64,000 bases of DNA from Streptomyces sp. Tu6071 (GTDB lineage: Bacteria; Actinomycetota; Actinomycetes; Streptomycetales; Streptomycetaceae), in contig NZ_CM001165.1 of assembly GCF_000213055.1 (NCBI RefSeq), positions 930,001 through 994,000 on the forward strand, read 5' to 3'. Below, in pieces: positions 8,267 to 51,207 of this stretch. Position numbers and translations under genes: made by a program. Under the pieces are notes generated by a model that was given only the letters and a program-made list of their open reading frames with translations, ran no database searches and had not been told where the DNA came from. Numbering within the stretch: position 1 is the first letter of the stretch; every line of letters starts with the position of its first letter.

Positions 8267-8272
8267 GACAAA

Positions 8273-8297: not shown

Positions 8298-8310
8298 ATC
8301 ATCAAAACGA

Positions 8311-8466: not shown

Positions 8467-8690
8467 TCGCTCTCCCCGATAGCGCGAGCTACGCGGCGCT
8501 TGTACTGCATCCAAACGGAATCAAAGTCCCGACTGGGGGAGACGATCTCGCGCTTATCTTTGATCACTCGGGCGTGACGCCCGTCGTACTCGCCATCCGA
8601 CATGGATTCCTGATAACGCAGGCCGGAATCGGGATGCCCTGCCACGGTCCCCCACCTTTCCCCTTCTGGGAAATCCGCTACCTCATGCAT
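8463..8690 (-). CDS. Hypothetical phage protein, 75 aa
   Basis: ATG 8690 follows AAGGGTGAG; a TTG seven codons earlier is possible. Charged, with YDGRHARVIKDKREIVSPSRDF and a C-terminal helix DSVWMQYKRRVARAIGESE. Coupled by overlap to the next gene. Not recognised. Confidence 0.5.
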   Translation of the reverse strand: MHEVADFPEGERWGTVAGHPDSGLRYQESMSDGEYDGRHARVIKDKREIVSPSRDFDSVWMQYKRRVARAIGESE

Positions 8691-8765
8691 AGCCCGCTCA
8701 CCCTTCCTCAACTCGCACTCGCCTTTACCCTCTCGTTTAACGTCGCTCAGACGACGTGTCAGATC

Positions 8766-9014
8766 TCAGAATGGCCTTAGGGGGGTCATGAGGTTAAACC
8801 CTCGCCACAGAGGTTCGGGTACCTGCACAACCACCGTGCCAGAGAATCGGGTAACAGGTTCCCTGAGCCTTGCATCACTTTCCCACCCCATCATTTGTAC
8901 GAATGAAGTCGCACCGTGCAAGTGCGGGAACTCAATATCCATCCAGTCTTCGCATGAGCCGTGCAAGATCGCGTTGAAGTGAACAACGATGTTCGACAAC
9001 TCTTCTTGCGTCAT
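8766..9014 (-). CDS. Hypothetical phage protein, 82 aa
   Basis: Begins 3 nt after the stop of the 53-aa gene. EELSNIVVHFNAILHGSCEDW then FPHLHGATSFVQMMGW, ending with a beta pair GTVVVQVPEPLWRGFNL. No family recognised; codon use and packing support a real gene. Confidence 0.55.
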   Translation of the reverse strand: MTQEELSNIVVHFNAILHGSCEDWMDIEFPHLHGATSFVQMMGWESDARLREPVTRFSGTVVVQVPEPLWRGFNLMTPLRPF

Positions 9015-9017
9015 TGG

Positions 9018-9179
9018 TCAGCCCCTCACCAGGTAGTCAGCCATGTGTGTTTCCGCGCAGTCATCACAGATGGGGCCTACGTGCTGCGCTCGTTTTTCCC
9101 CGGCCTTGGCACGCCCATAGTCGTGCACACCCGGGTTTTGCGTGAAATGCGATTCGTGTTCGCAGTTGCATTGCTTCAC
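9018..9179 (-). CDS. Cys/His-rich mini-protein, 53 aa
   Basis: Below the usual size cut-off. GTG 9179 follows GTAGGGG. The peptide has QCNCEHESH near the start and ICDDCAETHM near the end, a likely zinc site made of two Cys pairs and histidines. It sits 3 nt from the next start and 9 nt from the previous stop. Role unknown. Confidence 0.6.
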   Translation of the reverse strand: MKQCNCEHESHFTQNPGVHDYGRAKAGEKRAQHVGPICDDCAETHMADYLVRG

Positions 9180-9188
9180 CCTTGACCC

Positions 9189-9392
9189 CTACTTCCCTAG
9201 CCACTTGCAGGCATCCGAAAAGCCCTGTGCGCAATCGTCCGCCTTGGCGTCCGAAAACCCCTCATTGAAGGAGCTTACATGGCTATGCCCGGACTCGGAG
9301 GGTGATTCAACACTTTCCCACATCTGCCCCCCGAAAACGCCCAACAGGCAGGCAGCAACGGCCACACTCGCGAACTGAAGAACTCGCCTCAC
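9189..9392 (-). CDS. Small exported or membrane-anchored protein, 67 aa
   Basis: A basic start (MRR) and a hydrophobic helix (VLQFASVAVAACLLGVFGG) form a signal or anchor. A soluble acidic tail has two Cys (DDCAQGFSDACKWLGK). GGGAGGGG precedes the GTG start. A surface protein made early in infection could affect adsorption or superinfection, but that is a guess. Confidence 0.55.
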   Translation of the reverse strand: MRRVLQFASVAVAACLLGVFGGQMWESVESPSESGHSHVSSFNEGFSDAKADDCAQGFSDACKWLGK

Positions 9393-9441
9393 TTGATCCC
9401 CTCCCGTTTAACGTCCAAGGGACGTGACAACTATTGCCACC

Positions 9442-9458
9442 CGCCCCCTGTGGGGGCG
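9442..9458 (-). terminator. Hairpin in the 109-bp gap
   Basis: CGCCCCC and GGGGGCG flank TGT. Located between the 54-aa and 67-aa genes; no T-tract, so only a weak terminator candidate. Confidence 0.4.
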
Positions 9459-9501
9459 ACGCTCACGGCCTAAAGCCTGTTTAGAGTCGCCGTGACGACT
9501 G

Positions 9502-9666
9502 TCAGGAACCTGCCGCACACAGATCCAAATATTCTCGGAACTGGTACCACTCATCTACGCTTCGGAATGTCAACCCATCAACATCAGGGTGAAACAACAT
9601 CCCATTTTCGATACGGACTTCCGGACGGTACTCAGGCGGGTAAATTACCCAATCGTCATTGATCAT
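9502..9666 (-). CDS. Hypothetical phage protein, 54 aa
   Basis: GGGAGG precedes ATG 9666, so the short product is preferred over the open frame that runs into the neighbour. Aromatic and acidic: DDWVIYPPEYRPEVRIENG, then RSVDEWYQFREYLDLC. No family recognised. Confidence 0.6.
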   Translation of the reverse strand: MINDDWVIYPPEYRPEVRIENGMLFHPDVDGLTFRSVDEWYQFREYLDLCAAGS

Positions 9667-9683
9667 GATTCCTCCCTTTCGAG

Positions 9684-9995
9684 TTAGATCCAGTCGGTTG
9701 CCGCATGACGTTCGCCATGCATTGGACTGCCGCACCCCTCGCACATGCTTGTGCTGTAGGTATCCGTTTCGCAGTCGCACTCGCCCCTGTCCGCACCTTC
9801 GGACTTGTGGACGTGGCACTCCTCGTTGTGGTCCTTCCACCCCATTCCGGGGTTGGCCCGGTTGCTGAGCTGGGAAAGCGGCATACCATCCTGGTGTTCC
9901 GGTTCCGTGTGGCAGCCCCCACACTCGCCGTTTGCCAGGTGCCCAATGCAATCCGTGCAAACCCACGCGGTGACCGGCTCAAGCTGCGTACTCAT
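9684..9995 (-). CDS. Cysteine-rich zinc-binding protein, 103 aa
   Basis: Eleven Cys, mostly in pairs: WVCTDCIGH, GECGGCHTE, ECHVH, GECDCETD and MCEGCGSPMHGERH. The first and last pairs look like ribbon knuckles, with several His between, so two zinc sites are plausible. AAGGGGAATAGGG precedes the ATG. It is the largest of the Cys-rich proteins in this operon; no named family recognised. Confidence 0.65.
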   Translation of the reverse strand: MSTQLEPVTAWVCTDCIGHLANGECGGCHTEPEHQDGMPLSQLSNRANPGMGWKDHNEECHVHKSEGADRGECDCETDTYSTSMCEGCGSPMHGERHAATDWI

Positions 9996-10071
9996 CCCTA
10001 TTCCCCTTCATCTGTACCCCCTAGGTGGAGATAAGAGGGCACTCACAGCGTGAGTACCCGATACCTCTAAC

Positions 10072-10302
10072 CTAGCCTTTGCGCCTACTGATAATCCCTT
10101 GCAACTCGGCACACGCGCCTACCACCTCATCTTTACTCATGAGGCTCCCAAGCGAATCCACGCTAACGAGTTGGCGAATCGCTCTTCCGTTCTGCACCCG
10201 AATACCATCGTCCATGATTGTGCAGGACCACCCAGCGGCTTTCAGTCGATTCATTGCCTCACTGAACAGAATGGCGTGACCGTAGTAAAAACGCTCGCCC
10301 AT
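10072..10302 (-). CDS. Hypothetical phage protein, 76 aa; first gene of the leftward block
   Basis: ATG 10302 chosen behind GGAAAGACGG; the frame is open further but loses codon bias. MGERFYYGHAILFSEAMNRL, then AAGWSCTIMDDGIRVQNGRA, and a helical end (SKDEVVGACAELQGIISRRKG). The promoter of the leftward early block must lie upstream, in the gene-poor stretch that follows. Confidence 0.55.
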   Translation of the reverse strand: MGERFYYGHAILFSEAMNRLKAAGWSCTIMDDGIRVQNGRAIRQLVSVDSLGSLMSKDEVVGACAELQGIISRRKG

Positions 10303-10989
10303 AGCCGTCTTTCCGTCCCTAGTAGCGCCGCACTGTGCGACTCCCCTACGCAGGCAGTCTGTCATCCCCTTAGGACAGGAGCCCCGGGCCGGGAGAGTGT
10401 CAGTCCCCCGTGCCCGTGTCCCGCCTGCCGGATCATGTCGCCTGTCTGCGGTAGGCAATCCCAAGTGCTGATCCCGTGGGCGGCTTCCTCACGCCTGATC
10501 ACGGGGTCATGCGAGCTATGCCGACTGGCAGAGCCGATGGCGCCTCTGGCGCCCGCTCACAGCCCCTACAGGGGCCACGCTCGCACGTGTGTGTTGCTGC
10601 GCATAGCCTGTCGATGCGCCTCTCTACCGGCCGTAGGACCCCGCCGGTACAGGTCATCAGGTAATTCAGCGCATGACAGAAAGCGCTATGCGAATCACCC
10701 GGAAGTAATGGGCTCTCTATGGAGTTCTCAAGTCGGCTGCGCTCCCTTTGTACTCACCCTCTCGGGCTTTCCTCTGGTGCCCCCGGGGCCGCTTGCGCTG
10801 CCCCGTTCCGACATGGAGAAAGCTAGCCCTCTAGCCACAAGCTCTCAATCCCCCTCGTGCAACCTGGCGTGCGACAGATGCACGCTGTGTATCAGTGCCC
10901 GCTTGATTGGGGGAAGGAACGCGCACACGAGCGCACGTTGCATAAAGCGCTGTTCTTGTCAAGGGTATATAACGGGCAATCACAAGGTA

Positions 10990-11002
10990 TTCCGTCACGG
11001 AA
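10990..11002. promoter_or_regulatory. 13-bp palindrome, possible operator
   Basis: TTCCGT C ACGGAA, perfect arms of 6, placed 20 nt after an AT-rich GTATATAAC segment in the gene-poor region. A repressor site for early transcription is possible. Confidence 0.4.
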
Positions 11003-11406
11003 AGTAGTCAACCAGTCTTTGCCTGCGCTTTAAGGTGTGTCCGGAATAGGTGGATTCACATATTCACAACCATGCCAGCACTTGGGCATAGCGTGATCCG
11101 TACGTGACAAAAGCACGCGCTTAGCTCCTGATGCCCCCTTCGCAGATCAGGGCAATTAGGGCACGCCCTGTGCTCTGCTATCCCCCTATCCATACCCCCA
11201 ATTCCCACATGCCCTACCTGCCTAGATACGCCCCACTAGTACAAGCCCCCCGCACAGGTATCCCCTATACGGCTATTGCCCCACTAGGCACGTATCCCAA
11301 CCCGTACCCGGCTCCCTGCTAGCCCTCCCTCAAGCACCCCTCCCACCCAAGAGGCACGACACCCAAACGATCCGGCGCGCGCCTTCCGTGCGTCCTCACC
11401 GCCCCT

Positions 11407-11424
11407 TTCATGTATGTGCTCATT
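11407..11424 (+). repeat. Dispersed motif, degenerate partial copy
   Basis: TTTCATGTATGTGCTCATT-like segment aligning with copy E (CATATATGTGCTAATT) with a few changes. Weak alone; listed because two full copies follow within 120 bp. Confidence 0.45.
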
Positions 11425-11440
11425 CCCGCCTCTCAGCTCG

Positions 11441-11468
11441 AATTAGGCACATATATGTATGTCCCCAT
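11441..11468 (-). repeat. Dispersed motif, copy B
   Basis: Read on the minus strand it gives CATGGGGACATAC, the core ACATATATGT and GTGCCTAATT, nearly identical to copy A over 28 bp but in opposite orientation. Confidence 0.75.
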
Positions 11469-11513
11469 GAGGGAGATCTCATCTCCCAAGTCCATGCCCT
11501 GTGCACGCGTATT

Positions 11514-11537
11514 GATAGGCACATATATGTATCCCCC
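11514..11537 (-). repeat. Dispersed motif, copy C
   Basis: On the minus strand GGGGGATAC, core ACATATATGT, then GCCTATC. It has the same orientation as copy B, 73 bp away. A further half-match, GCACACATATGCAT, follows at 11553-11571. Confidence 0.7.
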
Positions 11538-11867
11538 TACCCCTGGGGTAATGCGCACACATATGCATAAAGGACCCACCGGGGGTGCCTTCCTTTGATC
11601 GTGTACGGGTTTCATTATTTTCACAATGGCACAAATCTCTGAGTGCCTTTCTAAGCGCTTCTCGACCCACTAATACACCTGGGACACCAGACAGCACCTT
11701 TTAGGCGCCAGAAGGGCCTTTCAGGGCCTTTTTCGGCAGCGTTAGGCGCCCCAACCGCCTTCAATAACATCTGTCAAGGCATTCGCCTGCCTTTCTTGTG
11801 TGATTTGCAGCACATCATTGAGTGAATGCGTGAATAAAAGTGCTATCTCACACCTACATTACTTATA

Positions 11868-11890
11868 GGGCAGGGTTATATACCCTGCCC
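11868..11890. repeat. Perfect 9-bp inverted repeat with TATAT loop
   Basis: GGGCAGGGT and ACCCTGCCC around TATAT. Located just before a second hairpin (AGGCCCC/GGGGCCT near 11903-11921) and the terminator. It may be part of a structured transcript or an operator. Confidence 0.5.
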
Positions 11891-11943
11891 ATTAGAGGAA
11901 GTAGGCCCCTTCAAGGGGGCCTCTGGTGAATGAACACACAGAT

Positions 11944-11975
11944 AAGCCCCCGCCTTACTGGCGGGGGCTTTTTCT
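11944..11975 (+). terminator. Intrinsic terminator, rightward
   Basis: 11-bp stem AAGCCCCCGCC/GGCGGGGGCTT, loop TTACT, then TTTC. It ends some rightward transcript from the gene-poor region, implying that a plus-strand RNA exists there. Confidence 0.85.
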
Positions 11976-11999
11976 TGTCTGTGATAGGTAAGGGCCCCC

Positions 12000-12025
12000 G
12001 GGATCAGCCGGGGGGCTCTGATCCC
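12000..12025 (-). terminator. Hairpin after the HTH regulator gene
   Basis: GGGATCAG/CTGATCCC with a GC-rich loop, 25 nt past the stop at 12050 on the minus strand. Confidence 0.5.
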
Positions 12026-12054
12026 CCATGGGGACTTACATATATGTGCCTAAC
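12025..12054 (+). repeat. Dispersed motif, copy D
   Basis: CCCATGGGGACTTAC, core ACATATATGT and GTGCCTAACC. It overlaps the stop codon of the HTH regulator gene on the opposite strand. Confidence 0.75.
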
Positions 12055-12811
12055 CCCTTGGGGGCAGGGGCACCCCTCGTTCCCACAGCTCCTCGGCATG
12101 GTCGCGGAAGCGGCTGAACAGGCCCTCAGCGCCCAGGCGCCGCAGGTGCAGCATGGGTGAGTCGTGTCCCACCAGCCGCGCCAGATGCGGCGTCACCAAT
12201 GCATCGTCATCGAACCGAAAAACGGACAGGCCAACATGGTTCACAGCGTCCTCAGGGGAGGAGAACCGCGTCTCCACCCCCGCTAGGGGCCCGAGGCGTT
12301 CTAGGTGCTCCAACGTGATACGCACCCGTGTGGATACCGCCAAGGCCGTATCTTCAATGGCCTCTCGGTTCCGCGTGACTGCCCCCTCAGGGTCCCCCAG
12401 TAGAAACCTGATGCGGCAACCGGTCTCAGATTTCTTTTTCACGATCTCCGGGAACCGGGGAATGGTTGTCCACAGGAAATAGTTCGTATACCCGGCAAAC
12501 AGGATGTCCTTTTTTGCGGCATGAACTAAGTCCGTCCACACCTGATTTGGGCACGCACTGCGATACGGATAGGAGTGCACCAATTCTAGATCCTCACCGG
12601 ACTTGATGCGCTCTTTGACGACCCTGGGCCAGATCATTTCTTCATCCACTTTCAATGCGAGGGCAGCGTCCTGCCGATTTCGTGCATGGGGTATCAAATT
12701 TTCGTCGGCTATCCAGCGCTCAACGGTTTTTTTACTCACCCCTAGGCGTACTCCGAGGCTCCCAGGCGTTTCTCTAGCGGCGTTCATAGCCGATTGCAAA
12801 CGAGTGTTCAA
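12050..12811 (-). CDS. HTH regulator with PLD-like C-terminal domain, 253 aa
   Basis: N-terminal MNAARETPGSLGVRLGVSKKTVERWIADENLIP is an XRE/MerR-like helix-turn-helix (residues 8-42). The remaining 200 residues form the alpha/beta sensory domain often found fused to such HTHs in Streptomyces: AKKDILFAGYTNYFLWTTIP, CRIRFLLGDPEGAVT, VGLSVFRFDDDALVTPHLAR, SPMLHLRR. This domain resembles phospholipase D but lacks an obvious HKD. It is divergent from the RiPP cassette, with four GACGT boxes between, so it probably controls the cassette and itself. A phage immunity role cannot be excluded. Confidence 0.75.
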   Translation of the reverse strand: MNTRLQSAMNAARETPGSLGVRLGVSKKTVERWIADENLIPHARNRQDAALALKVDEEMIWPRVVKERIKSGEDLELVHSYPYRSACPNQVWTDLVHAAKKDILFAGYTNYFLWTTIPRFPEIVKKKSETGCRIRFLLGDPEGAVTRNREAIEDTALAVSTRVRITLEHLERLGPLAGVETRFSSPEDAVNHVGLSVFRFDDDALVTPHLARLVGHDSPMLHLRRLGAEGLFSRFRDHAEELWERGVPLPPRG

Positions 12812-12822
12812 GGCTGCTCCCC

Positions 12823-12882
12823 GAGACGTTTGGGACGTTTCACGGTACCGCCCAGACGTCTCAACTGCCCCTGAACGTCCCC
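12823..12882. promoter_or_regulatory. Cluster of GRGACGTYY boxes between regulator and RiPP cassette
   Basis: GAGACGTTT (12823) and GGGACGTTT (12832) in tandem, a palindrome AGACGTCT (12854-12861), and an inverted GAACGTCCCC (12873-12882). Likely operators for the divergent HTH regulator. A TTGTCA at 12887 could serve as a -35 for the rightward genes, but no good -10 is seen. Confidence 0.55.
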
Positions 12883-12996
12883 CACTTTGTCACCGTTGCG
12901 GCGTCATGATGGTTGCACCTCCCCGGTTAACCCAACCGGAGTGGACCACACGGAGCCCGGCCTAGAGCTACGCTCCAGACAACAGGAAGGACCGCC

Positions 12997-13188
12997 ATGC
13001 CCGCCTTCGCTCTCCTCACTCCGTCTCCCGCTCCCGTCGTCGCCAGCTCTACCCCGGCGCGGACCTACGACTCCGCGCGGCAGCTCAACGTCACCGCGTT
13101 CGGGTCGGCCGTCGTGGACACCCCCGGAGTGCTGTTCGGTGACTCCATGACGATCAACTCTTCTGGCTCCAAGAAGGACGACGACTGA
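12997..13188 (+). CDS. tgmA: ATP-grasp-modified RiPP (graspetide) precursor, 63 aa
   Basis: A short peptide encoded directly before an ATP-grasp ligase. The leader contains RTYDSARQLNVTAFGSAVVD (residues 22-41), matching the RQLNVT-type recognition stretch of TgmA-like precursors. The C-terminal core GDSMTINSSGSKKDDD supplies Ser/Thr donors and three terminal Asp acceptors for side-chain ester links. AGGAAGG precedes the ATG, and the stop is 1 nt from the next ATG. The family is common in Streptomyces chromosomes; here it is prophage cargo. The actual crosslinks are unknown. Confidence 0.85.
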   Translation: MPAFALLTPSPAPVVASSTPARTYDSARQLNVTAFGSAVVDTPGVLFGDSMTINSSGSKKDDD

Positions 13189-13189
13189 T

Positions 13190-14200
13190 ATGCCTCTGCC
13201 TCCAACCGTTCTGGTGGTGTCATCCCCAGGAGACCTTGCCGTTGATCTAGTGGTACGCCATGTGGCCAATCGCAACGTGGACGTACACAGGATCGATCCG
13301 GCAGACCTGACCCGCCCCGGAGTGCTGCGTCTCTCCGGACACTCTGACGATGAGCCGGTCAGGTTCACCCTCAGGGACGAGAACAGAGAGACACTGTCTC
13401 CCTCGATCGTGTCGGTTTTCTGGTGGCATCCCGAACAGCCCGAGGGGTGGGAACAGAGTGAGTCCCGTGTCATTCTCGAAAGCCTGCTGTACGGCCTCGA
13501 AGATGTCATGTGGGTCAATCACCCCCACAAGGCGTTGGCGGCCAGGCCGGGGCCCTCACAGCTCCGGCTGGCCTCAACGCTCGGGTTCTCCACCCCTCCT
13601 GCGCTCTACACGAACGACCCTGAGGAAGCTGCGCGGTTCGCCAACGAACATGGCGGGCGTGTGGTCTGTAAAACCCTCACGGGGCACCCCGACCGTTTCA
13701 TTCCGGCCCGGGTGGTGGACGCGCAGGAAATCAGGGAATCCGGGGACAGCATTCGCCAGGCAGTGCATTGCTTTCAGATGCCTGTGGAAAAGCGGCACGA
13801 CGTCCGTTTGACCGTGATCGGCGAGCGCGCGTTCCCCTGCAAGATCGATGCCTCTGGGGGTATCGACTGGCGGGCAATCCCTGAGGAGGGTACGGCGTTT
13901 GAGGCTACGCCGATGAGTCGCCCGCTAGGCAAGCGTGTTGGTGCACTGATGCAGTCTATGGGGCTGGAGTACGCAGCCCTTGACTTTGCAGTGGATACAC
14001 GCGGAGTGTGGTGGTTCCTGGAGGCCAACCCCTCTGGCCAATTTGGCTTCGTAGAGGCCAAAACCGGAATGGCCATTTCCAGGGCCATTGCTGACCACCT
14101 CACAGAAGCGGCCCTAGCAACAAGGTCGTTCACTCCGGGTGGGGGGCATCGCGCTTCGTCTCCTGCCGCGCCCTGGCCGGGTGGGGAGGTTGAATCCTGA
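13190..14200 (+). CDS. tgmB: ATP-grasp ribosomal peptide ligase (TgmB-like), 336 aa
   Basis: Activates Asp/Glu carboxylates with ATP and joins them to Ser/Thr/Lys side chains of the precursor. Length fits the family (about 310-340 aa). Visible features are an N-terminal Rossmann-like part (TVLVVSSPGDLAVDLVV, VSVFWWHPEQP), ATP-binding GGRVVCKTL with K161, DFAVD (D265), and the metal-binding FLEANPSGQF with E278 and N280. Translation is coupled to the precursor. The methyltransferase (isoAsp-forming) that often completes Tgm clusters is absent. A terminator follows. Confidence 0.9.
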   Translation: MPLPPTVLVVSSPGDLAVDLVVRHVANRNVDVHRIDPADLTRPGVLRLSGHSDDEPVRFTLRDENRETLSPSIVSVFWWHPEQPEGWEQSESRVILESLLYGLEDVMWVNHPHKALAARPGPSQLRLASTLGFSTPPALYTNDPEEAARFANEHGGRVVCKTLTGHPDRFIPARVVDAQEIRESGDSIRQAVHCFQMPVEKRHDVRLTVIGERAFPCKIDASGGIDWRAIPEEGTAFEATPMSRPLGKRVGALMQSMGLEYAALDFAVDTRGVWWFLEANPSGQFGFVEAKTGMAISRAIADHLTEAALATRSFTPGGGHRASSPAAPWPGGEVES

Positions 14201-14212
14201 GGCCGAAAGCTG

Positions 14213-14240
14213 GAAGGGGCACCCCCAGGGGTGCCCCTTC
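14213..14240 (+). terminator. Terminator after the RiPP cassette
   Basis: 13-bp near-perfect stem GAAGGGGCACCCC/GGGGTGCCCCTTC, then TTGTG. It ends the two-gene cassette. Confidence 0.8.
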
Positions 14241-14260
14241 TTGTGTCCTACTCCTCTCCC

Positions 14261-14290
14261 CCATGCCCACTTACATATATGTGCTAATTG
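14261..14290 (+). repeat. Dispersed motif, copy E
   Basis: CCATGCCCACTTAC, core ACATATATGT and GTGCTAATT. Lies between the RiPP terminator and the terminator of the leftward operon. Confidence 0.75.
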
Positions 14291-14304
14291 CGGAACGTGA
14301 ACAG

Positions 14305-14338
14305 CCCCCGCCCAGGGGAGAACGTCACCGGGCGGGGG
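14305..14338 (-). terminator. Terminator of the leftward 14.35-15.88 kb operon
   Basis: 9-bp arms CCCCCGCCC and GGGCGGGGG separated by 16 nt, just past the stop at 14352. Confidence 0.6.
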
Positions 14339-14351
14339 CGGTCAGGGGGGC

Positions 14352-14624
14352 CTAGCCGTCCTGGCCCTGTTCCTTGCGGCCTGCCACGTCACGCAGAAGG
14401 TCTGTTAGTCGTTCTGCCTCACGGAGGGGGAGACGACCGAGGTCAATCAGCCGAGTGTCATCCCGTGAGTCTGTGGTGAGCGAGCAGGACGGAAGGTCCG
14501 CCTGCACGGACGGCAGTCGTATACCGACCGCCTTGAAGGCGTTGTGCAGTCTTGTGGCTACTTCCTGCGCTTCCCACAGGGGGCCATGCACCACGGGTGT
14601 GCGGTCTGCTGTTTCCATGGACAC
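14352..14624 (-). CDS. Hypothetical small protein, 90 aa (paralogue of the 14653 gene)
   Basis: GTG start behind GAAAGG. The stretch VATRLHNAFKAVGIRLPSVQ, then IDLGRLPLREAERLTDLLRDVA, lines up with the next gene's AVEFVNALRRLGVDFPEIHV, then LGNISMADAERLAVRVNEVA. The two are diverged paralogues with the same helix-strand-helix plan. Such proteins occur beside XRE-DUF5753/DUF397 genes in Streptomyces elements; function unknown. Confidence 0.65.
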   Translation of the reverse strand: MSMETADRTPVVHGPLWEAQEVATRLHNAFKAVGIRLPSVQADLPSCSLTTDSRDDTRLIDLGRLPLREAERLTDLLRDVAGRKEQGQDG

Positions 14625-14652
14625 GGGTTTACCTTTCGGGTGAGTGATATTT

Positions 14653-15000
14653 TCAGGATAGGGGGATGTATCCCATCAAATCCGTTTCAGGATTCTCCCA
14701 CTCCCGCTTCTCTGCCTTGCGGGCTTTTTTCCTTTCCCGAGCCTTGTGCCGATCCACGATGTCAGCGACCTCATTGACGCGCACCGCGAGCCGTTCGGCA
14801 TCCGCCATGGAAATGTTTCCGAGACCCACGGAGAAGGTGACATCAGCACTGTCATGCTTGCAGGGCTCTTCCACGTGGATTTCCGGAAAATCCACCCCCA
14901 GGCGCCGAAGCGCGTTCACGAACTCAACGGCTTTCATTACAGCTTCGTCTTTGTCCGTGTAGCTAAAGTACTCGGGGCCGACAGGTTCCAGGTTCACCAT
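14653..15000 (-). CDS. Hypothetical small protein, 115 aa (paralogue of the 14352 gene)
   Basis: ATG 15000 chosen (GAAGAG upstream and 22 nt past the previous stop); the frame extends 16 codons further. The core matches its neighbour. The C-terminus is a charged helix (DIVDRHKARERKKARKAEKREW) and a short tail. No family recognised. Confidence 0.6.
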   Translation of the reverse strand: MVNLEPVGPEYFSYTDKDEAVMKAVEFVNALRRLGVDFPEIHVEEPCKHDSADVTFSVGLGNISMADAERLAVRVNEVADIVDRHKARERKKARKAEKREWENPETDLMGYIPLS

Positions 15001-15022
15001 TCGCTCTTCACTTACTTTGGGG

Positions 15023-15421
15023 TCAGCTCTTGACCCATGCGATTTCACGGGGGGTCATTTCCGTGATTACCTTGATTGGAGTTACAGCGATTACATAATG
15101 AGTGAACTCCTCCCCGGCCCAGACCCTTGCGGGGTCTCCCGCAGTCAAGGTGGCCTCAGCCTGTTTGTGGGCCAGTTCGTTAACCGCCCAATTATAGAAG
15201 AGTCGGCCCGGGTTGTAATTGCTGCCGGACTCTTCCAGGTATCGGGCCGGAATTAGGCTGTCACCGGGAACGGGGTCCAGGACGCGGGCGAACCGGTACG
15301 CCCGTTCCGTCATCCAACGAACAGCCAATTCCGGTGACTGGGCGGCTGCACGGGCGACGATGAACGGACGCCGCCCGTGCACGATCACCGCTTGCTCACA
15401 CAGGAGCCTGACGCGTCTCAC
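15023..15421 (-). CDS. Hypothetical protein, 132 aa
   Basis: GTG overlaps the stop of the upstream gene (GTGA). An Arg/Ala-rich helical N-terminus (RRVRLLCEQAVIVHGRRPFIVARAAAQSP) leads to FARVLDPVPGDSLIPARYLE and a tail with EEFTHYVIAVTPIKVITEM. Not recognised; typical accessory protein of this operon type. Confidence 0.6.
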   Translation of the reverse strand: MRRVRLLCEQAVIVHGRRPFIVARAAAQSPELAVRWMTERAYRFARVLDPVPGDSLIPARYLEESGSNYNPGRLFYNWAVNELAHKQAEATLTAGDPARVWAGEEFTHYVIAVTPIKVITEMTPREIAWVKS

Positions 15422-15693
15422 CGTGCCTCCGCCCCCATGAGGTGAAGGACGTAGCTGGTGTAAGCCCGGAAAACGCTGTGTCCGGTCTCAGCGTGATGCG
15501 CCTCGGCCCAGACCCACGCGCCTTGCCGTGCGGCCTCGTCTGCTGCGCCGTCCACGCTGAAAGGGTCCACGTCCACCCAATCCCCTAGCGCGGGGCAGGA
15601 AGCGCATCCGACCGCGTACCCGTTCGGTTCCGCCTCGGGGCTTTGGTGGGTGATCAGGGCCCGGTGGCGGGGCTTGAAGAGTCTGAGGAGCAT
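15418..15693 (-). CDS. DUF7848-like small protein, 91 aa
   Basis: YAVGCASCPALGDWVDVDP holds a CxxC, and the second half has WVWAEAHHAETGHSVFRAYT, the pattern of small Streptomyces proteins often encoded near XRE/DUF397 loci. GAGGGG stands upstream of ATG 15693. Family assignment is from memory and tentative; function unknown. Confidence 0.6.
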   Translation of the reverse strand: MLLRLFKPRHRALITHQSPEAEPNGYAVGCASCPALGDWVDVDPFSVDGAADEAARQGAWVWAEAHHAETGHSVFRAYTSYVLHLMGAEAR

Positions 15694-15702
15694 GGGGTCC
15701 CC

Positions 15703-15882
15703 TCAGAGGTACTTGCGGTGCTTTTCGTACGCGGCTTGAAAGGCCGTGCACCGGGCGTACAGAGGGTCCTGCGACTCCTCTTCCTCCGGCGGGCCGCCCT
15801 GCTCCTCTTCCACGGGGTCGCTGGGGGCCTCTACGGCAGAGGTGGGGGGAACGTTAGGGGTGGGGTCCGCGTTCGTGGGCAC
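15703..15882 (-). CDS. Hypothetical protein, 59 aa; first gene of the leftward operon
   Basis: GTG 15882 behind GGAAGGAGG is far better supported than the longer frame. N-terminal half Pro/Thr/Glu-rich and disordered; C-terminal DPLYARCTAFQAAYEKHRKYL is a helix. Not recognised. Confidence 0.55.
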   Translation of the reverse strand: MPTNADPTPNVPPTSAVEAPSDPVEEEQGGPPEEEESQDPLYARCTAFQAAYEKHRKYL

Positions 15883-15907
15883 GGCGGGCCTCCTTCCCGA
15901 GTGGGGC

Positions 15908-15927
15908 GAGTTGGTGTGCAACAACTC
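15908..15927. promoter_or_regulatory. Inverted repeat in the divergent promoter region
   Basis: GAGTTG and CAACTC separated by 8 nt, in the 127-bp gap between the leftward operon and the XRE-DUF5753 gene. A natural site for that regulator. Confidence 0.45.
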
Positions 15928-16009
15928 TGGACCCCCCTACGAGGTGCCTCTAGCCTGTTTGGTGGGCAATCTCCACTTGCCCAAAAACGCATATGCCAGA
16001 GGGGATCAC

Positions 16010-16822
16010 GTGTCCGACGACGCCAAACAGATGTTCGCCTCGCGACTGGGGGAGGCCAGGGACCAGTCCGGGGACACGCAAGAGGGCATGGCACGCCTGT
16101 TGAACATGTCCCGACGGGCGTACGGGAGGATTGAGAAGGGTGAGGATCTAGCTCCCCCAAATGTGCCGCCCCTTCTTGACGAACACTTTCGAACAGGAAG
16201 GCTTTTCCAAGAGTTCTTCACCCTGGCCTGCAAGGAGGCGATTCCCGACCAATACAGGGCGCGTATGAAAATGGAGTCGGATGAGGCAACCGAGATAAAA
16301 GAGTACGCAGATACGCTGGTTCCGGGGCTCGTGACTACCGAAGCGTACGCAACAGCTTTTTTCACTGAGGGGCAGCGGCAGCAACCCCACAAAATCGGCG
16401 AGTTGATGACTCTGCGGAGGAAACGACAAGCCAGGCTGGAATCAGACGATCCACCATACCTGAGGATTCTGCTGAGTGAGACCGTTCTACTACGCCCCGT
16501 AGGCGGGGGCGCGGTGATGGCCGAGCAACTTCGGTTCCTGGCCGATCGGGTGGACCTTCCCCGGATCAGCATTCAGGTTGCTCCGCTCAGTCTCGGAGCG
16601 CACCCCCTGCTAGGCGGCACGCTGGTCCTGATGCACCGTGGTGAGGCGCCTCCGATCCTGTGGGAGGAGTCCACTACCACAGGAACTCTGATCCAAGATC
16701 CTAAAACTGTTAGCGAGTCCCTGTGGCTGTATGATCGCCTGTGGGGCATGTCCCTAAGTCCTGTCGAGTCACGGCGGCTGCTACTGCAAGCGGCTAAGGA
16801 AATGGAACAGAACCATGGTTGA
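16010..16822 (+). CDS. XRE-family regulator with DUF5753, 270 aa
   Basis: Helix-turn-helix at residues 8-50 (RLGEARDQSGDTQEGMARLL, MSRRAYGRIEKGED). The DUF5753 domain follows (YADTLVPGLVTTEAYATAFF, LRRKRQARLESDDPPYLRILLSE, QLRFLADRVDLPRISIQVAP). GTG 16010 follows GAGGGG; the open frame upstream has no bias. This is the standard Streptomyces partner of DUF397 proteins (WhiJ-like), which follows with an 8-nt overlap. It is usually a local repressor whose action is relieved by the small partner. Here it lies at the right end of the prophage. Confidence 0.88.
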   Translation: MSDDAKQMFASRLGEARDQSGDTQEGMARLLNMSRRAYGRIEKGEDLAPPNVPPLLDEHFRTGRLFQEFFTLACKEAIPDQYRARMKMESDEATEIKEYADTLVPGLVTTEAYATAFFTEGQRQQPHKIGELMTLRRKRQARLESDDPPYLRILLSETVLLRPVGGGAVMAEQLRFLADRVDLPRISIQVAPLSLGAHPLLGGTLVLMHRGEAPPILWEESTTTGTLIQDPKTVSESLWLYDRLWGMSLSPVESRRLLLQAAKEMEQNHG

Positions 16823-17000
16823 AGAGGGATGGGTCAAAAGTTCTTACAGCAACTCGAACGGGGGCGGCTGTGTGGAATGGGCTAGCAACATCGCACGCAC
16901 TCAGCACGTGGTGCCGGTTCGTGACTCCAAGGATGTCAGCATTCCCGGTTTCACCGTGGCTGGGGCAGCGTGGGGCACGTTCGTGGAGTCCGTGAAGTAA
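16815..17000 (+). CDS. DUF397 protein, 61 aa
   Basis: Typical DUF397 start WVKSSYSNSNGGGCVEWA and the conserved VPVRDSKD, then FTVAGAAWGTFVESVK. It is the small partner of the XRE-DUF5753 regulator, overlapping its stop by 8 nt. Strong bidirectional terminator downstream. Confidence 0.92.
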   Translation: MVEEGWVKSSYSNSNGGGCVEWASNIARTQHVVPVRDSKDVSIPGFTVAGAAWGTFVESVK

Positions 17001-17030
17001 CCTAGTCAAGCCCCTCCCCTCGGGGTGCAA

Positions 17031-17067
17031 GAAGCCCCCTCCCGACTATGACTCGGGAGGGGGCTTC
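17031..17067. terminator. Bidirectional terminator
   Basis: Perfect 15-bp stem (GAAGCCCCCTCCCGA and its complement), loop CTATGAC, followed by T-rich sequence on the plus strand. Separates the DUF397 gene from the converging 77-aa gene. Confidence 0.85.
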
Positions 17068-17085
17068 TCTACTGTCGTAGGGACC

Positions 17086-17319
17086 TTAGAGGGCTGTTCT
17101 AATGGTAAGAGACATTGGCGTTGTAGCTGCCCCAGAAGAGAACCACCAAGGCCGTTCGGGTGCCTGTGGGGCCGGTACTGCGACTGCTGCCCGCTGGGCA
17201 GAGTCAAGGCCCGTGAGCTGTCGCAGCACGGCGCAACGGCGGCCCTGATCCAGCGTCATGAGCGTTGCGCCAAGCTCCTGCAAGGTGCTCTGACCTGCGG
17301 TACTGTCCAGCGTAGGCAT
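17086..17319 (-). CDS. Hypothetical protein next to the attachment site, 77 aa
   Basis: GGAGGGG precedes ATG 17319, a strong signal. TLQELGATLMTLDQGRRCAVLRQLTGLDSAQRAAVA is helical, then Pro-rich. It is the last complete prophage gene before the junction and reads away from it. Not recognised. Confidence 0.5.
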   Translation of the reverse strand: MPTLDSTAGQSTLQELGATLMTLDQGRRCAVLRQLTGLDSAQRAAVAVPAPQAPERPWWFSSGAATTPMSLTIRTAL

Positions 17320-17983
17320 ACCAGTCCCCTCCTGGCCCTACGGTCGTAGAGCCTATCAGCTTCTGATGGTAGAACTTCATGCCGCGACGGCGGGCGGCGG
17401 CGCCGTACTTGTTGAAGTCCGCGGCGGCGCGCTTCCAGGCGTCGACGGTGTCGCCGTAGCGGAAGGGGCCCGAGGCGGTGCCGATGTGGGGCAGGCCGAG
17501 GGTCTGGGCGTCGTCGAGGACCTTCTCCAGGTTCTGGGCGAAGGAGTACGCGTCCGGGTTGTTGTCGTCGTAGTAGTTGACGTGGCTGCCGATGCCCTTG
17601 AGGCCGTGGTCGCGGGCGAGGCGGGCGAGCTGGGGCAGGGTGAGGGAGCCGGTGCCCTGCGTGTAGCCCGCGTACTCGACCTCGTCGTAGCCGAAGCGCT
17701 CCAGCTCGTCGAAGACCTTGGCGAAGCCGAGCGAGGCGACCTTGTCGCGCAGCGAGTAGAGCTGGATGCCGAGCCGGCCCTTCGGCAGGGCGGGGACGCC
17801 CCCGCCGTGGCCGTGACCGTGCCCGTGGTCGTGCCCGTGGCCGTGGCCGCCTCCGTGTGCGGCGGCCTGGCCGGTGCCGAGGCCGAGGAGGGCCGCGGCG
17901 CCGAGACCGGCGCCGACGCCGAGCATCCCTCTTCTGCTGAGGCGGGCGGAGAGTTCCTCGTCCACTGTCTTCTTGCGGCTCAT
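17204..17983 (-). pseudogene. Secreted sugar-phosphate isomerase/epimerase, C-terminus lost at prophage junction
   Basis: A TAT-type signal (RLSRRGMLGVGAGLGAAALLG) and a His/Gly-rich linker precede the TIM-barrel start. The barrel reads LGIQLYSLRDKV, ELERFGYDEVEYAGY, LARDHGLKGIGSHVNYY, LGLPHIGTA, then RRRGMKFYH. Xylose-isomerase-like barrels run on with HNH-type metal ligands for another 100 or more residues. Here the frame enters prophage DNA after about 208 residues and ends in unrelated sequence. CAGGGAG precedes ATG 17983. It lies 64 bp below the Ebo block on the same strand, so it may have been the last gene of that operon. Confidence 0.8.
17340..17376. other. Prophage-chromosome junction (attachment site)
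   Basis: The isomerase reading frame is normal Streptomyces up to GMKFY, then turns to phage codon use (CAT CAG AAG CTG ATA) and has no family similarity. An inverted repeat ATCAG CTT CTGAT (17355-17367) and CTACG..CGTAG (17338-17349) lie at the switch, as expected for arms of a serine-integrase site. The exact crossover cannot be fixed without the other end. Confidence 0.65.
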
Positions 17984-18047
17984 GCGTGGGCTCCCTGGGA
18001 GGAAGAAGGGGTGAGGTGGTGGTGCGGTGGCGCCGGAGGGGACGGGG

Positions 18048-47009: not shown

Positions 47010-47579
47010 ATGCGGACAGAGGTGGCGGGAGACGGTACGGGGACGAGCGGCGGGCCCGACGTCGCGGAGTGGGCGCTGCGCGCCGCCACCGCGGCGGATC
47101 TCGACGCCCTCGTGGAGATACGGGCCGAGGTCATGCGCCCGGACCTGGAGCGCCTCGGGCGCTACGACGAGCACCGCGTGCGGCAGCGGCTGCGGGACTC
47201 CTTCTCGCCGGCCCACACCTCGGCGGTCGTGTGCGGCGGGGCGCTCGCGGGGTGCGTCACCTTCCGGCCCGCCGAGGACGGCGGCCACTGGCTCGAACAC
47301 TTCTACCTCGCCCCCCGCCACCAGGGCCGGGGCCTCGGCGGCGCCGTCCTGCGCTCGCTCCTGGGGCGCGCGGACGGGCGGCCCGTGAGCCTGCACGTGC
47401 TGCGCGGCAGCGCCGCCCAGCGGCTCTACGCCCGCCACGGCTTCGCCGTCGAGGACGCGGGCCCGGTCGACGTACTGATGGTCCGACCGGCGGACGGCGC
47501 GAGGCCGAAGGCCGCTCCCGCGACACCGGAGACGGCTCCCACGACGCCGGGGGCCGCCCCCGCGGCGGCTCAGGGCTGA
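47010..47579 (+). CDS. GNAT-family N-acetyltransferase, 189 aa
   Basis: WALRAATAADLDALVEIRAEVM, then HWLEHFYLAPRHQGRGLGGAVLRSLLG with the acetyl-CoA loop RHQGRGLGG, and SAAQRLYARHGFAVEDAGPVDVLMVR. The C-terminal 30 residues are Ala/Pro/Thr-rich and probably disordered. Its end overlaps the converging P450 gene by 10 bp; no evidence links it to the peptide pathway. Confidence 0.85.
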   Translation: MRTEVAGDGTGTSGGPDVAEWALRAATAADLDALVEIRAEVMRPDLERLGRYDEHRVRQRLRDSFSPAHTSAVVCGGALAGCVTFRPAEDGGHWLEHFYLAPRHQGRGLGGAVLRSLLGRADGRPVSLHVLRGSAAQRLYARHGFAVEDAGPVDVLMVRPADGARPKAAPATPETAPTTPGAAPAAAQG

Positions 47580-48616
47580 ACGAGGCGGACCTGGTCCACC
47601 CCCATCAGCCCGGTGAGCGGCACCCGCGCGGTGCGCTGCCCGGGATCGACGACCAGGCCACTGGACCGGATCATGTCGAGGAGCATTTCGGCGAGGGGCA
47701 TGACCATGTGCCGCCCCCAGCAGCGTTCGGACGAATGCCCGAAGGGCAGATATCCGGGGACGCGTTCGGGGTCCAGTTCCTCCCAGCGCTCCGGCCTGAA
47801 TTCCTCGGGGTTTTCCCACAGCGCGGGATCGCGGTGGCTGAGGAAAGGGAGGACCAGAACGTCGTCGGCGGGTGCGATGCGTGCGTCGATCACGGGATAT
47901 TCGGGCGAGGAATTGCGCAGGATATTCCACGAGGGGGGCAGCAGCCGCAGGGACTCGTGGACGAGGTGGCGGCTCGGCACCTCGGCGGCGAAGGGGGCTC
48001 CGAGCCAGAGGGCGTTGGCGACGAGGGTGGAGATCGTGAAGCACACCGGCGCGGCCGTGCGCCGGTAGAGCCCCATCGCGTACCTGCGCTCCTGATACGT
48101 GGCGGCCCCGGTGCTCAGCGCGCCGAGCCGGGTCGTCCCGGTACGGCGGCGCGGTGCGGGGAGGGCGGCTCCGGCGGCGATGACGGTCCAGGTGAGCTTA
48201 GGCGTCAGCTCCAGGGCGCGGTTCATCAGGACGCGCAGGCGGCGCGGATCACCGCCGAGGATCAGGTCCCGGAGGTAGACGTGGCCGACGTGGGGCCACG
48301 GGCCCGAGAGGTCGGGGTCCCGCGGCGCCTCGCGCTTGAGCGCCGCGCGCACGTCGTGGCCGATGGCCTGCATCTGCGTCGCCGCCTGCTGGTGCGGGAT
48401 CGCGCGGCCGAGGAGCGGTTTGAACGTGGGCCGTTCGGTCTTGCCGGCCGGGCGCGCGGCGAGAATCCGGTCGACGAGCGCGGGCCCCGCGACGCCGACC
48501 GTGTCGGGCTCGGGGCGGAAGAGGTCCGCGCCGAGGTGGTCGCGGAGCAGGGCTTCGAGGGGCGGCGCGAAGAGGGTCTCCCGCTCGTGGGGGCGCGTCT
48601 GGGTGTGTGACGTCAT
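47570..48616 (-). CDS. trpB: Cytochrome P450, tryptorubin/atropopeptide-type peptide-crosslinking enzyme, 348 aa
   Basis: Heme-binding loop PFGHSSERCWGRHM with Cys299, ExxR at 221-224 (HESLRLLP) and PERF-like FRPERW (273-278). The I-helix region (about 187-203, TAAPVCFTISTLVANAL) lacks the usual acid-Thr pair, and the protein is shorter than typical 400-residue P450s. CTGGAGC precedes ATG. The 26-codon gene 107 nt upstream ends in AWYIWY, so this enzyme should form the aryl-aryl and aryl-amine bonds of tryptorubin A. The symbol follows tryptorubin usage and is unrelated to tryptophan synthase. Confidence 0.88.
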   Translation of the reverse strand: MTSHTQTRPHERETLFAPPLEALLRDHLGADLFRPEPDTVGVAGPALVDRILAARPAGKTERPTFKPLLGRAIPHQQAATQMQAIGHDVRAALKREAPRDPDLSGPWPHVGHVYLRDLILGGDPRRLRVLMNRALELTPKLTWTVIAAGAALPAPRRRTGTTRLGALSTGAATYQERRYAMGLYRRTAAPVCFTISTLVANALWLGAPFAAEVPSRHLVHESLRLLPPSWNILRNSSPEYPVIDARIAPADDVLVLPFLSHRDPALWENPEEFRPERWEELDPERVPGYLPFGHSSERCWGRHMVMPLAEMLLDMIRSSGLVVDPGQRTARVPLTGLMGVDQVRLVQP

Positions 48617-48723
48617 CCGTGCAGCTCCAGAGAACCGGGAAGGCGGCGCCCGGCGAACCCGTCGCCGGGCGCCGTCCCGGCTCGAAGATGCGCTCCCGGG
48701 AAGAGAACGCGGCCGAGGGGGGA

Positions 48724-48804
48724 TCAGTACCAGATGTACCAGGCGTGAGCCTTCAGGCTCTTCTGCTGGGACATCTTGTTCTTGAGCGAGAAAAGCAGCC
48801 GCAT
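48724..48804 (-). CDS. trpA: Tryptorubin A (atropopeptide) precursor peptide, 26 aa
   Basis: GAAGGAAAG precedes the ATG. The peptide has a basic leader (RLLFSLKNKMSQQKSLKAH) and ends AWYIWY-stop. Ala-Trp-Tyr-Ile-Trp-Tyr is the sequence of tryptorubin A, a hexapeptide whose Trp and Tyr rings are joined by a P450, so the core is residues 21-26 after His20. The P450 gene follows on the same strand. Far below gene-finder size limits, so usually unannotated. No protease or exporter is adjacent, consistent with the minimal clusters known for this family. Confidence 0.92.
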   Translation of the reverse strand: MRLLFSLKNKMSQQKSLKAHAWYIWY

Positions 48805-49383
48805 TTTCTTTCCTTCTTTCCGGGTGGGCGGTCGAGGAAAACCACGCGCCTTCCGGTCGATCGATCGGATTTCCCGTCGGCGCGCTGATGATCAGTGAAG
48901 ACCAGCAATTGATGGCCTGTCAACGCTCCTGGGAAGAATTTGCCACGGGCAGACCTCTCCGGCCTTTTTCCGGGCCCGGTTGTCCGAAAGCGAGCCACCG
49001 GGGTTTATCCGGCTCGCCGGGCGGGGAGTCCGTACGGAATCAGCGCCCGGCGAGCCGGGCCCTCCTCCCCCAGGGCCCCGCGCGCCGTCCCACCCCCACC
49101 TGACACCGTCTCACCTGCGAAAACACGTGCGACTTCGGTACAGATTCCGTGGAGGAGGGCCGCGCGGTACTTACTCCTCAGTCAGTAATCCCCCGCGATT
49201 CTCCTCACCGCCTGTCCCGCTGCGCCCCGGTTGGGGCGGGTTCCGGGGAGAGATCCGGGCATATGCGGGCGGGACCGGCGCCGCGCGAGGGCTCCCCTGG
49301 TGGCGCTTACCTGCGGTAGCGTCTCGGCGCCGTACCCCCGCACCAGCCCGGCGCGAGGGTGCGCGGCGCCACGAGGAGCAGCT
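48805..49383. other. 579-bp gap upstream of the precursor gene
   Basis: Contains the candidate promoter at 48894-48923, a GGTCGATCGATCGG palindromic stretch near 48855 and, towards the right, the region before the acyl-CoA ligase. No further small gene with a convincing ribosome-binding site was found. Confidence 0.5.
48894..48923 (-). promoter_or_regulatory. Candidate promoter of the precursor-P450 operon
   Basis: On the minus strand TTGACA (48918-48923) and TTCACT (48894-48899) lie 18 nt apart, about 90 nt before the precursor ATG. The -35 is consensus; the -10 is weak. Confidence 0.5.
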
Positions 49384-51207
49384 TTGCGCGAGTTCAGTCA
49401 GCCCCCGCTGACCCGGGCGCGGCCGGTGGGCGGCCTCGCCGACTGCGTCTTCGACCACGCGGTCGAGGACCCGGGCCGGGTCGTGCTCGCGCGCAAGAGC
49501 GGCGGGCGCTGGCAGGACGTGACGGCGGCCGGTTTCCGCGATCAGGTGCTCGCGGTCGCGAAGGGGCTGCTCGCCGAGGGCATCCGCTTCGGGGACCGGG
49601 TCGCGCTCATGGCGCCGACGCGCTACGAGTGGACGCTGCTCGACTTCGCGCTGTGGACCGTGGGCGCGCAGGTGGTCCCCGTGTACCCGACGTCGTCGGC
49701 GGAGCAGGTGTACTGGATGCTCCACGACGCGCAGGCCGCCGCCGCGTTCGTGGAGCACGAGGACCACGCGATGACGGTCGGCTCGGTCATCGATCGCCTC
49801 CCCCACCTGCGCCGCCTGTGGCAGTTCGACGCGGGCGCGGAGCAGGAGCTGATGGTGGCGGGCGCGGACATCGCGGACGAGGTGGTGCACCGGCACCGCA
49901 GGGCGGTCACGCCCGACTCGGTGGCCTCGGTCATCTACACCTCGGGCACGACGGGCCGCCCCAAGGGCTGCGTCCTGACCCACGGCAACTTCATGTTCGA
50001 GGCGGACACGCTGCTCGACGCGTGGGAGCCGGTCTTCACGCCGCACCACGGCGAGGAGGCGTCGACACTGCTGTTCCTGCCGCTCGCGCACGTCTTCGGG
50101 CGCGTCGTGGAGGTCGCCGCGGTACGGGGGCGGGTCAAATTCGGGCATCAGCCCCGGCTCAGCGCGGACGCGCTCCTCCCGGAACTGGCGGCGTTCCGGC
50201 CCAGCTTCGTCCTCGCGGTCCCCTACATCTTCGAGAAGATCTACCGCTCGGCGGCGCGCAGGGCGGAGGCCGAGGGGCGCGCCGGGGTCTTCGCGAAGGC
50301 GGTCGAGGTCGCGGTGCGGTACGCGGAGGCGCGCGAGCAGCGGGCGCTGGGGCGGGGCGCCGGGCCGGGGGCCCAGCTGCGGATGCAGCACCAGCTCTAC
50401 GACAAGCTGGTGTACGCGCGGCTGCGCGCGGTGCTCGGCGGCCGCTTGCGGTACGCGATGTCGGGCGGTTCGGGGATGGACCGCAAGCTCGGGCTGTTCT
50501 TCTCGGGCGCTGGCCTGACGGTGTACGAGGGGTACGGGCTCACCGAGTCGAGCGCGGCGGCGACGGCGAACCCGCCGGGCCGGGCCCGCTTCGGCACGGT
50601 GGGACAGCCGCTGCCGGGGACGGCGGTGCGGATCGCGGAGGACGGCGAGGTGTGGCTGCGCGGGGAGCACGTCTTCCAGGGCTACCTCAACACCCCGCGC
50701 AGCGGGCACACGGCGCTGCGCGAGGGCTGGCTCGCGACGGGCGACATCGGGCGGCTCGACGAGGACGGCTACCTCACCATCACGGGCCGCAAGAAGGAGA
50801 TCCTCGTGACCTCGGGCGGCAAGAGCGTCTCCCCCGGGCCACTGGAGGACCGGGTGCGCGAACACCCGCTCGTGGCGCAGTGCGTCGTGCTCGGCAACGA
50901 CCGCCCGTACGTCTCGGCGCTCGTCACGCTCGACGCGGACGCGGTCTCGCACTGGCTGGAGATGCGCGGGCAGCCGGTCCGCGAGCCGGCGGCCGTGGTG
51001 CGCGATCCGGAGCTGGAGCGGGAGGTGCGCCGCGCGGTCGTCGCGGCGAACACGCAGGTCTCGCAGGCGGAGTCGATCCGTACCTTCCGCATCCTGGCGC
51101 GCCCCTTCACCGAGGAGCAGGGCCTGCTCACGCCCTCGCTGAAGCTCAAGCGCAAGGCGATCGAGGAGACGTACGCGCACGAGATCACGGCGCTGTACAG
51201 GGGCTGA
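49384..51207 (+). CDS. Long-chain acyl-CoA synthetase (AMP-forming), 607 aa
   Basis: Activates fatty acids to acyl-CoA through an acyl-adenylate. The P-loop motif is SVIYTSGTTGRPKGCVLTH; TVYEGYGLTESSAAAT and GWLATGDIGRLDEDGYLTITGRKKE follow, and the C-terminal Lys region is SLKLKRKAIEETYAH. TTG 49384 follows GAGGAG; no ATG or GTG fits as well. FAA1-type length. Not obviously tied to either neighbour. Confidence 0.9.
   Translation: MREFSQPPLTRARPVGGLADCVFDHAVEDPGRVVLARKSGGRWQDVTAAGFRDQVLAVAKGLLAEGIRFGDRVALMAPTRYEWTLLDFALWTVGAQVVPVYPTSSAEQVYWMLHDAQAAAAFVEHEDHAMTVGSVIDRLPHLRRLWQFDAGAEQELMVAGADIADEVVHRHRRAVTPDSVASVIYTSGTTGRPKGCVLTHGNFMFEADTLLDAWEPVFTPHHGEEASTLLFLPLAHVFGRVVEVAAVRGRVKFGHQPRLSADALLPELAAFRPSFVLAVPYIFEKIYRSAARRAEAEGRAGVFAKAVEVAVRYAEAREQRALGRGAGPGAQLRMQHQLYDKLVYARLRAVLGGRLRYAMSGGSGMDRKLGLFFSGAGLTVYEGYGLTESSAAATANPPGRARFGTVGQPLPGTAVRIAEDGEVWLRGEHVFQGYLNTPRSGHTALREGWLATGDIGRLDEDGYLTITGRKKEILVTSGGKSVSPGPLEDRVREHPLVAQCVVLGNDRPYVSALVTLDADAVSHWLEMRGQPVREPAAVVRDPELEREVRRAVVAANTQVSQAESIRTFRILARPFTEEQGLLTPSLKLKRKAIEETYAHEITALYRG

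What the first reader, a model, noticed from the sequence alone, without database searches (positions are those of the whole stretch)
47570..48804. Minimal atropopeptide (tryptorubin) cluster with an unannotatable 26-codon precursor
The sequence shows a ribosome-binding site, a 26-codon frame ending AWYIWY-stop, then a P450 gene on the same strand. AWYIWY is the amino-acid sequence of tryptorubin A, known as a ribosomal peptide whose aromatic residues are crosslinked by a P450. The locus should thus make tryptorubin A or a close relative. Release from the leader after His20 is inferred; no protease gene is adjacent, so a host enzyme must trim it.
Basis: partly seen in the sequence, partly recalled or inferred. 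Interest (0 to 1): 0.95.

Follow-up and report, generated by a model that had tools for sequence, protein, structure and literature searches.

The report
Tryptorubin A atropopeptide gene pair
A Streptomyces chromosome carries the known two-gene recipe for the cross-linked peptide tryptorubin A: a 26-residue precursor and one P450 enzyme, with a strong RNA hairpin between the two genes that recurs in many related clusters.

Summary
On the minus strand, window 48724-48804 encodes MRLLFSLKNKMSQQKSLKAHAWYIWY behind a ribosome-binding site, followed by a 348-aa P450 (47570-48616). It is not chance: the AWYIWY-stop DNA pattern occurs in 14 of 392 Streptomyces genomes, once each, always 65-259 nt upstream of a relative of this P450, and each of the 80 related loci kept (of 115 found) has a Trp-containing precursor before the P450. 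The reading is right too: an atropopeptide cluster with the tryptorubin A core. This RiPP family is published, including the two-gene layout, the KSLK leader motif and an unidentified host protease. A sister locus with a 25/26 identical precursor lies in Streptomyces sp. SPB074. It may keep precursor in excess over enzyme. The cluster is known in kind and in product; only for the hairpin did I find no description.

The parts
48811..48815 (-). ribosome-binding site of the precursor gene (AAGGA)
   Evidence: read from sequence; the 20 nt before the ATG are the same in L005 and differ by one base in L004
48724..48804 (-). precursor peptide gene, 26 codons plus stop; leader 1-20 (KSLK at 15-18), core AWYIWY 21-26
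   Evidence: identical in L004, one residue different in L005; a precursor is present in 80 of 80 relatives, 77 by rule and 3 by eye
48632..48683 (-). stable RNA hairpin between precursor stop and P450 start
   Evidence: whole gap z -3.5 against shuffles, best 50-nt fold z -5.4
48625..48628 (-). GGAG, probable ribosome-binding site of the P450 gene
   Evidence: read from sequence
47570..48616 (-). atropopeptide-type cytochrome P450, 348 aa (ExxR at 221, haem-loop FGHSSERCWG at 292)
   Evidence: that these two motifs are the P450 hallmarks is recalled

Best explanation
A minimal atropopeptide gene cluster. The ribosome makes the 26-residue precursor. Its leader, with KSLK, docks on the neighbouring P450, which oxidatively bridges aromatic residues of the core AWYIWY. 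A host protease then cuts after His20 to release tryptorubin A, and a further loss of Ala21 gives tryptorubin B. A hairpin between the genes may lower P450 expression so that precursor is in excess. Shown here: the genes, their conservation, their linkage and the hairpin. Inferred from the published family: docking, bridging, cleavage, product. Inferred by me: what the hairpin does.
For: Core and KSLK motif as the family is defined. P450 55% identical to the one in L083, which is the published sva locus by accession and whose precursor ends SWYQWL as published, and 67% to a P450 named as from Streptomyces jumonjinensis (P0104; the jum cluster of that species is published to give amyxirubin B; I did not check that P0104 is that very enzyme). 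80 of 80 related loci have a precursor. AWYIWY-stop was found only beside this kind of P450, 14 of 14. The tree groups the window with SID11385 and SPB074, support 100/100. Another family P450, LauB1, gives tryptorubin B from its precursor. Hairpin: z -2 or lower in 64 of 81 gaps against 28 of 107 control co-directional gaps, with covariation in two chosen sets.
Against: No expression or mass data. SvaB makes two bridging patterns from one core, so bridges cannot be read from the core alone. The reference P450 WP_007820080.1 could not be fetched for a direct comparison, and the published classifier was not run. For the hairpin: 17 of 81 loci miss the criterion; control gaps also fold better than their shuffles (co-directional mean z -1.0, convergent -1.9); the loci are related, so the counts are not independent; the second covariation set is weaker.
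Confidence: 0.9

Rival explanations
1. A true atropopeptide cluster, but the P450 sets a different bridge pattern on AWYIWY, giving an isomer of tryptorubin A or a less bridged peptide.
For: SvaB yields varsorubin B1 and B2a from one core with non-overlapping bridges; ScaB gives monocyclic products from many cores. The window P450 and its two sisters sit on a long branch of 0.46.
Against: LauB1 gives tryptorubin B, and jum gives amyxirubin B although its P450 is only 59% identical to the amyxirubin P450: the same core tends to give the same product.
Confidence: 0.12
2. The hairpin is a plain transcription terminator or mRNA 3' end stabiliser for the precursor, and the P450 is transcribed from its own promoter; no ratio control.
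For: It lies in the gap just after the precursor stop. Convergent gaps, where terminators are expected, also often fold well (16 of 47 at z -2 or lower).
Against: No T-run after the stem: the simple scan finds no terminator-like site in 47500-49400. It finds no sigma-70-like site either, but none before the precursor too, so that half of the scan says nothing. Only 15 nt lie between stem and P450 start here, leaving no room for a promoter there; in many relatives this stretch is longer, so the argument is local.
Confidence: 0.35
3. The 26-codon frame is a chance ORF beside an unrelated P450.
For: Short frame; the Pfam match covers only part of the P450.
Against: Co-occurrence 14 of 14, 80 of 80 precursors, codon conservation.
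Confidence: 0.005

Closest known systems
Tryptorubin A cluster (trp/try); reference P450 WP_007820080.1
   Same: Two genes, precursor plus one P450, no protease in the cluster (PMC11450843 sections 4 and 5 read). The paper gives WYIWY for tryptorubin B and Ala as the residue removed from tryptorubin A, hence AWYIWY
   Different: Could not be compared residue by residue: the accession was not retrievable and the founding papers are not held
Loci in Streptomyces sp. SPB074 (L005) and sp. SID11385 (L004)
   Same: Same gene order; precursor 25/26 and 26/26 identical, P450 91% and 96% identical; acetyltransferase, LysR, SBF, MFS, acyl-CoA ligase and AKR neighbours all match in both
   Different: Met11 is Leu in SPB074; other substitutions in the P450
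lau cluster (laurentirubin B), Streptomyces laurentii
   Same: Same pentapeptide sequence as tryptorubin B; LauB1 with LauA gives tryptorubin B (PMC11450843)
   Different: lau has a second P450 adding an ether bridge; here the nearest other P450 match is about 100 kb away
Biarylitides
   Same: Minimal RiPP cluster with a P450 and a tiny precursor (abstract start and passages of PMC13417212 seen)
   Different: Five-residue precursor, tripeptide product

Membership tests
Atropopeptides | Precursor of 10-40 aa with leader and C-terminal core followed by stop, near the P450 | tested here: met
   26 aa, 107 nt upstream of the P450; definition
Atropopeptides | KSLK or near variant before the core | tested here: met
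   KSLK at residues 15-18; the paper puts it at residues 17-20 of its precursors, which I take as alignment numbering
Atropopeptides | Trp at core position 2 | tested here: met
   A-W-Y-I-W-Y; definition
Atropopeptides | P450 of the atropopeptide-modifying kind | tested here: met
   55% identity to the P450 of the published sva locus (L083), 67% to a S. jumonjinensis P450; all 80 tree relatives have precursors. Not compared with WP_007820080.1; the AtropoFinder classifier was not run
Atropopeptides | C-C and C-N bridges, single atropisomer in the product | not testable with these tools
   needs chemistry
Tryptorubin A producer | Product made by this strain or this gene pair | not testable with these tools
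   no expression data
Biarylitides | Five-residue precursor | tested here: not met
   26 residues
Aminopyruvatide P450 ApyO (NF050147) | Score above the curated cut-off of 525 bits | tested here: not met
   71.8 bits over residues 217-328

The most novel reading that the evidence does not exclude
Across the atropopeptide family a very stable, covarying RNA hairpin between precursor and P450 is a conserved regulatory element that throttles the P450 and fixes a high substrate-to-enzyme ratio. This would fit the published report that adding a ribosome-binding site before svaB raised yield 100-fold.
Probability: 0.45. Interest if true: 0.4.

Novelty: already known. Interest (0 to 1): 0.22.

Why it matters
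It gives another strain with the tryptorubin A core, and independent support for the two-gene rule: in 392 Streptomyces genomes the core sequence followed by a stop was found nowhere but beside this kind of P450. The recurrent intergenic hairpin suggests a simple, testable handle on yield in heterologous expression of these clusters.

Tried and rejected
Founding papers (Angew 2022 by DOI and as PMC9826248; PMC5609116; PMC6996792) are not held, so whether SPB074 is one of the reported tryptorubin A producers was not confirmed; I recall it only vaguely. A paper search with strain names did not settle it. A search for the accession WP_007820080 found 3 papers, 2 listed, both family papers.

Adjacent acetyltransferase as a tailoring gene: rejected. 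It is convergent and matches in only 2 of 80 loci at E 1e-15 within the fetched flanks, both sisters of the window in which all six tested neighbours match.

First count of cores mis-split three precursors; replaced. Three loci (L063, L065, L082) missed the motif rule; their precursors were read in the translations (RSFK, KNLK, TSLK variants). Strict P450 motif patterns fit 63, 63 and 61 of 81 proteins; the rest have variants or are incomplete (L040 frame ends at 95 aa, L064 runs off its contig), not resolved further.

Hairpin: in relatives the gap was measured to the start of the tblastn match, not to a verified start codon, so it can include some first codons of the P450. The control gaps come from a rough gene call of my own. 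Covariation was counted on loci chosen by eye (37 of 81 loci folded there) because they share a similar hairpin: 10 of 16 of one set (left out L039, L024, L006, L011, L054, L058) and 8 of 9 of another (left out L021); a third set of 9 was only folded. Seven loci including the window were aligned but not counted, so covariation was not counted for the window's own clade. In the 8-row set the evidence is weaker: 8, 42 and 28 of 500 shuffles reach three of the five measures.

Literature for the hairpin: word searches of two papers and two library searches (5,679 papers with two of six terms, 8 listed, none of these mentions atropopeptides; all six terms, 0 papers). That is not proof that it is undescribed.

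Full report
What is there. On the minus strand of the window, an ATG at 48804 opens a 26-codon frame, MRLLFSLKNKMSQQKSLKAHAWYIWY, stop at 48724-48726. 107 nt on, a P450 gene runs from 48616 to 47570 (348 aa). Both have ribosome-binding sites (read). The window is bases 930001-994000 of contig 1 of a 7.5-Mb genome. The genus is inferred: genome G010, listed as same genus, has its P450 at the coordinates of the Streptomyces sp. SPB074 locus L005. The P450 is the only one of its kind in the genome: two other matches reach at most 49 bits against 785, although the genome has 26 Pfam P450 match segments.

Is it more than chance. The pattern for AWYIWY occurs once in the genome. With a stop (TAA or TGA; TAG not covered) it occurs in 14 of 392 Streptomyces genomes, one hit each, and 0 of 392 for the reversed control. 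Comparing positions with the P450 search of the same 392 genomes (46 with a match at E 1e-80 or better), all 14 hits lie 65-259 nt upstream of the P450 match on its strand. The precursor has 0 of 27 codons changed against L004 and 2 of 27 against L005, while the P450 has 64 and 88 of 349 changed (binomial P over 26 codons 0.005 and 0.024).

Relatives. One scan of a collection of 84,980 species genomes found 115 relatives of the P450 and kept the best 80, 55-96% identical, in Actinomycetota and Pseudomonadota. All 80 have a precursor upstream: 77 by rule, 3 by eye. The core is AWYIWY in 22 of 80; other common ones are AWYLWY 20, AWYFWY 12, AWYGWI 8. L083 is the published sva locus by accession, and my rule recovers its published core SWYQWL. 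In the P450 tree (81 rows) the window groups with Streptomyces sp. SID11385 and SPB074 (100/100), and the AWYIWY label needs 13 changes (gains or losses), at least 11 forced by well supported branches. This agrees with the published remark that the tryptorubin A core falls in several clusters. Six neighbours were sought in the fetched flanks of the 80 loci at E 1e-15: all six match in L004 and L005; in the whole set GNAT, SBF, MFS and acyl-CoA ligase match in 2 of 80 each, LysR and AKR in 4 of 80 each, the two extra ones at 29-41% identity. The functional unit is therefore most likely the two genes.

What is known. Papers seen: PMC11450843 (introduction, the whole results section and passages), PMC12352619 (abstract, sections 6 and 10, passages), passages of PMC12338139, PMC6676996 and PMC13417212. 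They describe tryptorubin A as a hexapeptide from a two-gene RiPP cluster, KSLK as the conserved leader motif, Trp at core position 2 as the only conserved core residue, an unknown ubiquitous protease, and further loss of the N-terminal Ala to the pentapeptide. The window meets each of the sequence criteria that I tested; the published classifier was not run.

What cannot be read from the sequence. Bridges. LauB1 gives tryptorubin B, and two P450s with 59% identity give the same amyxirubin B, so like core tends to give like product. But SvaB gives two bridge patterns from one core, and ScaB gives mostly monocyclic tetrapeptides. Expected masses are 897.393 and 826.356 for minus 4 H; the minus 4 H is inferred from varsorubin B1, which is reported with one C-C and two C-N bonds and a loss of four protons.

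The hairpin. The gap between the genes folds at -63.2 kcal/mol, z -3.5, 0 of 200 shuffles as stable. The local stem spans 48632-48683. Over all 81 loci the most stable 50-nt stretch of the gap has mean z -3.65, 64 of 81 at -2 or lower and 17 not; the stretch upstream of the precursor gives 13 of 81 and P450 coding sequence 2 of 81. Control gaps in the same loci, from a rough gene call: co-directional 28 of 107, convergent 16 of 47, divergent 2 of 39. The loci are related, so the 81 are not independent, and in relatives the gap ends at the start of the P450 match, which may lie some codons inside the gene. Two clade alignments show compensatory change: 7 pairs with both sides changed in 10 sequences, 0 of 500 shuffles as high; 4 pairs in 8 sequences, 8 of 500 (rows were chosen for a shared hairpin, see Tried and rejected; the window's own clade was not counted). 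No terminator-like T-run follows. The published observation that a ribosome-binding site placed before svaB raised yield 100-fold suggests that P450 supply limits one cluster as expressed; L083 (sva) has the hairpin at z -3.9. My inference is partial termination or translational throttling that keeps precursor in excess. I found no mention of it.

Verdict. The observation and the main interpretation hold. The system and the predicted product are already published, so novelty is low. The hairpin is a modest, testable addition.

Noticed in passing
window 9435-9500 (-): A full-length Pistol ribozyme match (Rfam RF02679, 69.4 bits, gathering 34.5) inside a stretch of low GC.
   Followed up: partly
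window 1-18000: GC 56-64% in 2-kb steps against 66-79% in the rest of the window. Of nine ORFs between 1998 and 16822 given to PHROGs and eight of them to Pfam, three show a family match: DUF3987 at 5196-6614, PHROG 2599 at 13190-14200, HTH/DUF5753 at 15746-16822. Of 3001-11000, only short matches to four phage records (two Streptomyces phages); of 1-18000, no plasmid match. Perhaps an acquired element.
   Followed up: partly
L040: In Xanthomonas cucurbitae the P450 frame read from the match start stops after 95 aa although similarity continues, with a precursor ending SWYIWY upstream.
   Followed up: no
plasmid records such as H5-H9 (Streptomyces clavuligerus): Relatives of this P450 lie on 18 plasmid records (16 Streptomyces, 2 Embleya) at 60-80% DNA identity; 5 were listed, matching inside the P450 gene. 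The precursor was not looked for there.
   Followed up: no
L065 and L079: Streptomyces sp. A 4/2 holds two different atropopeptide loci, cores AWYIWY and AWYGWI.
   Followed up: no
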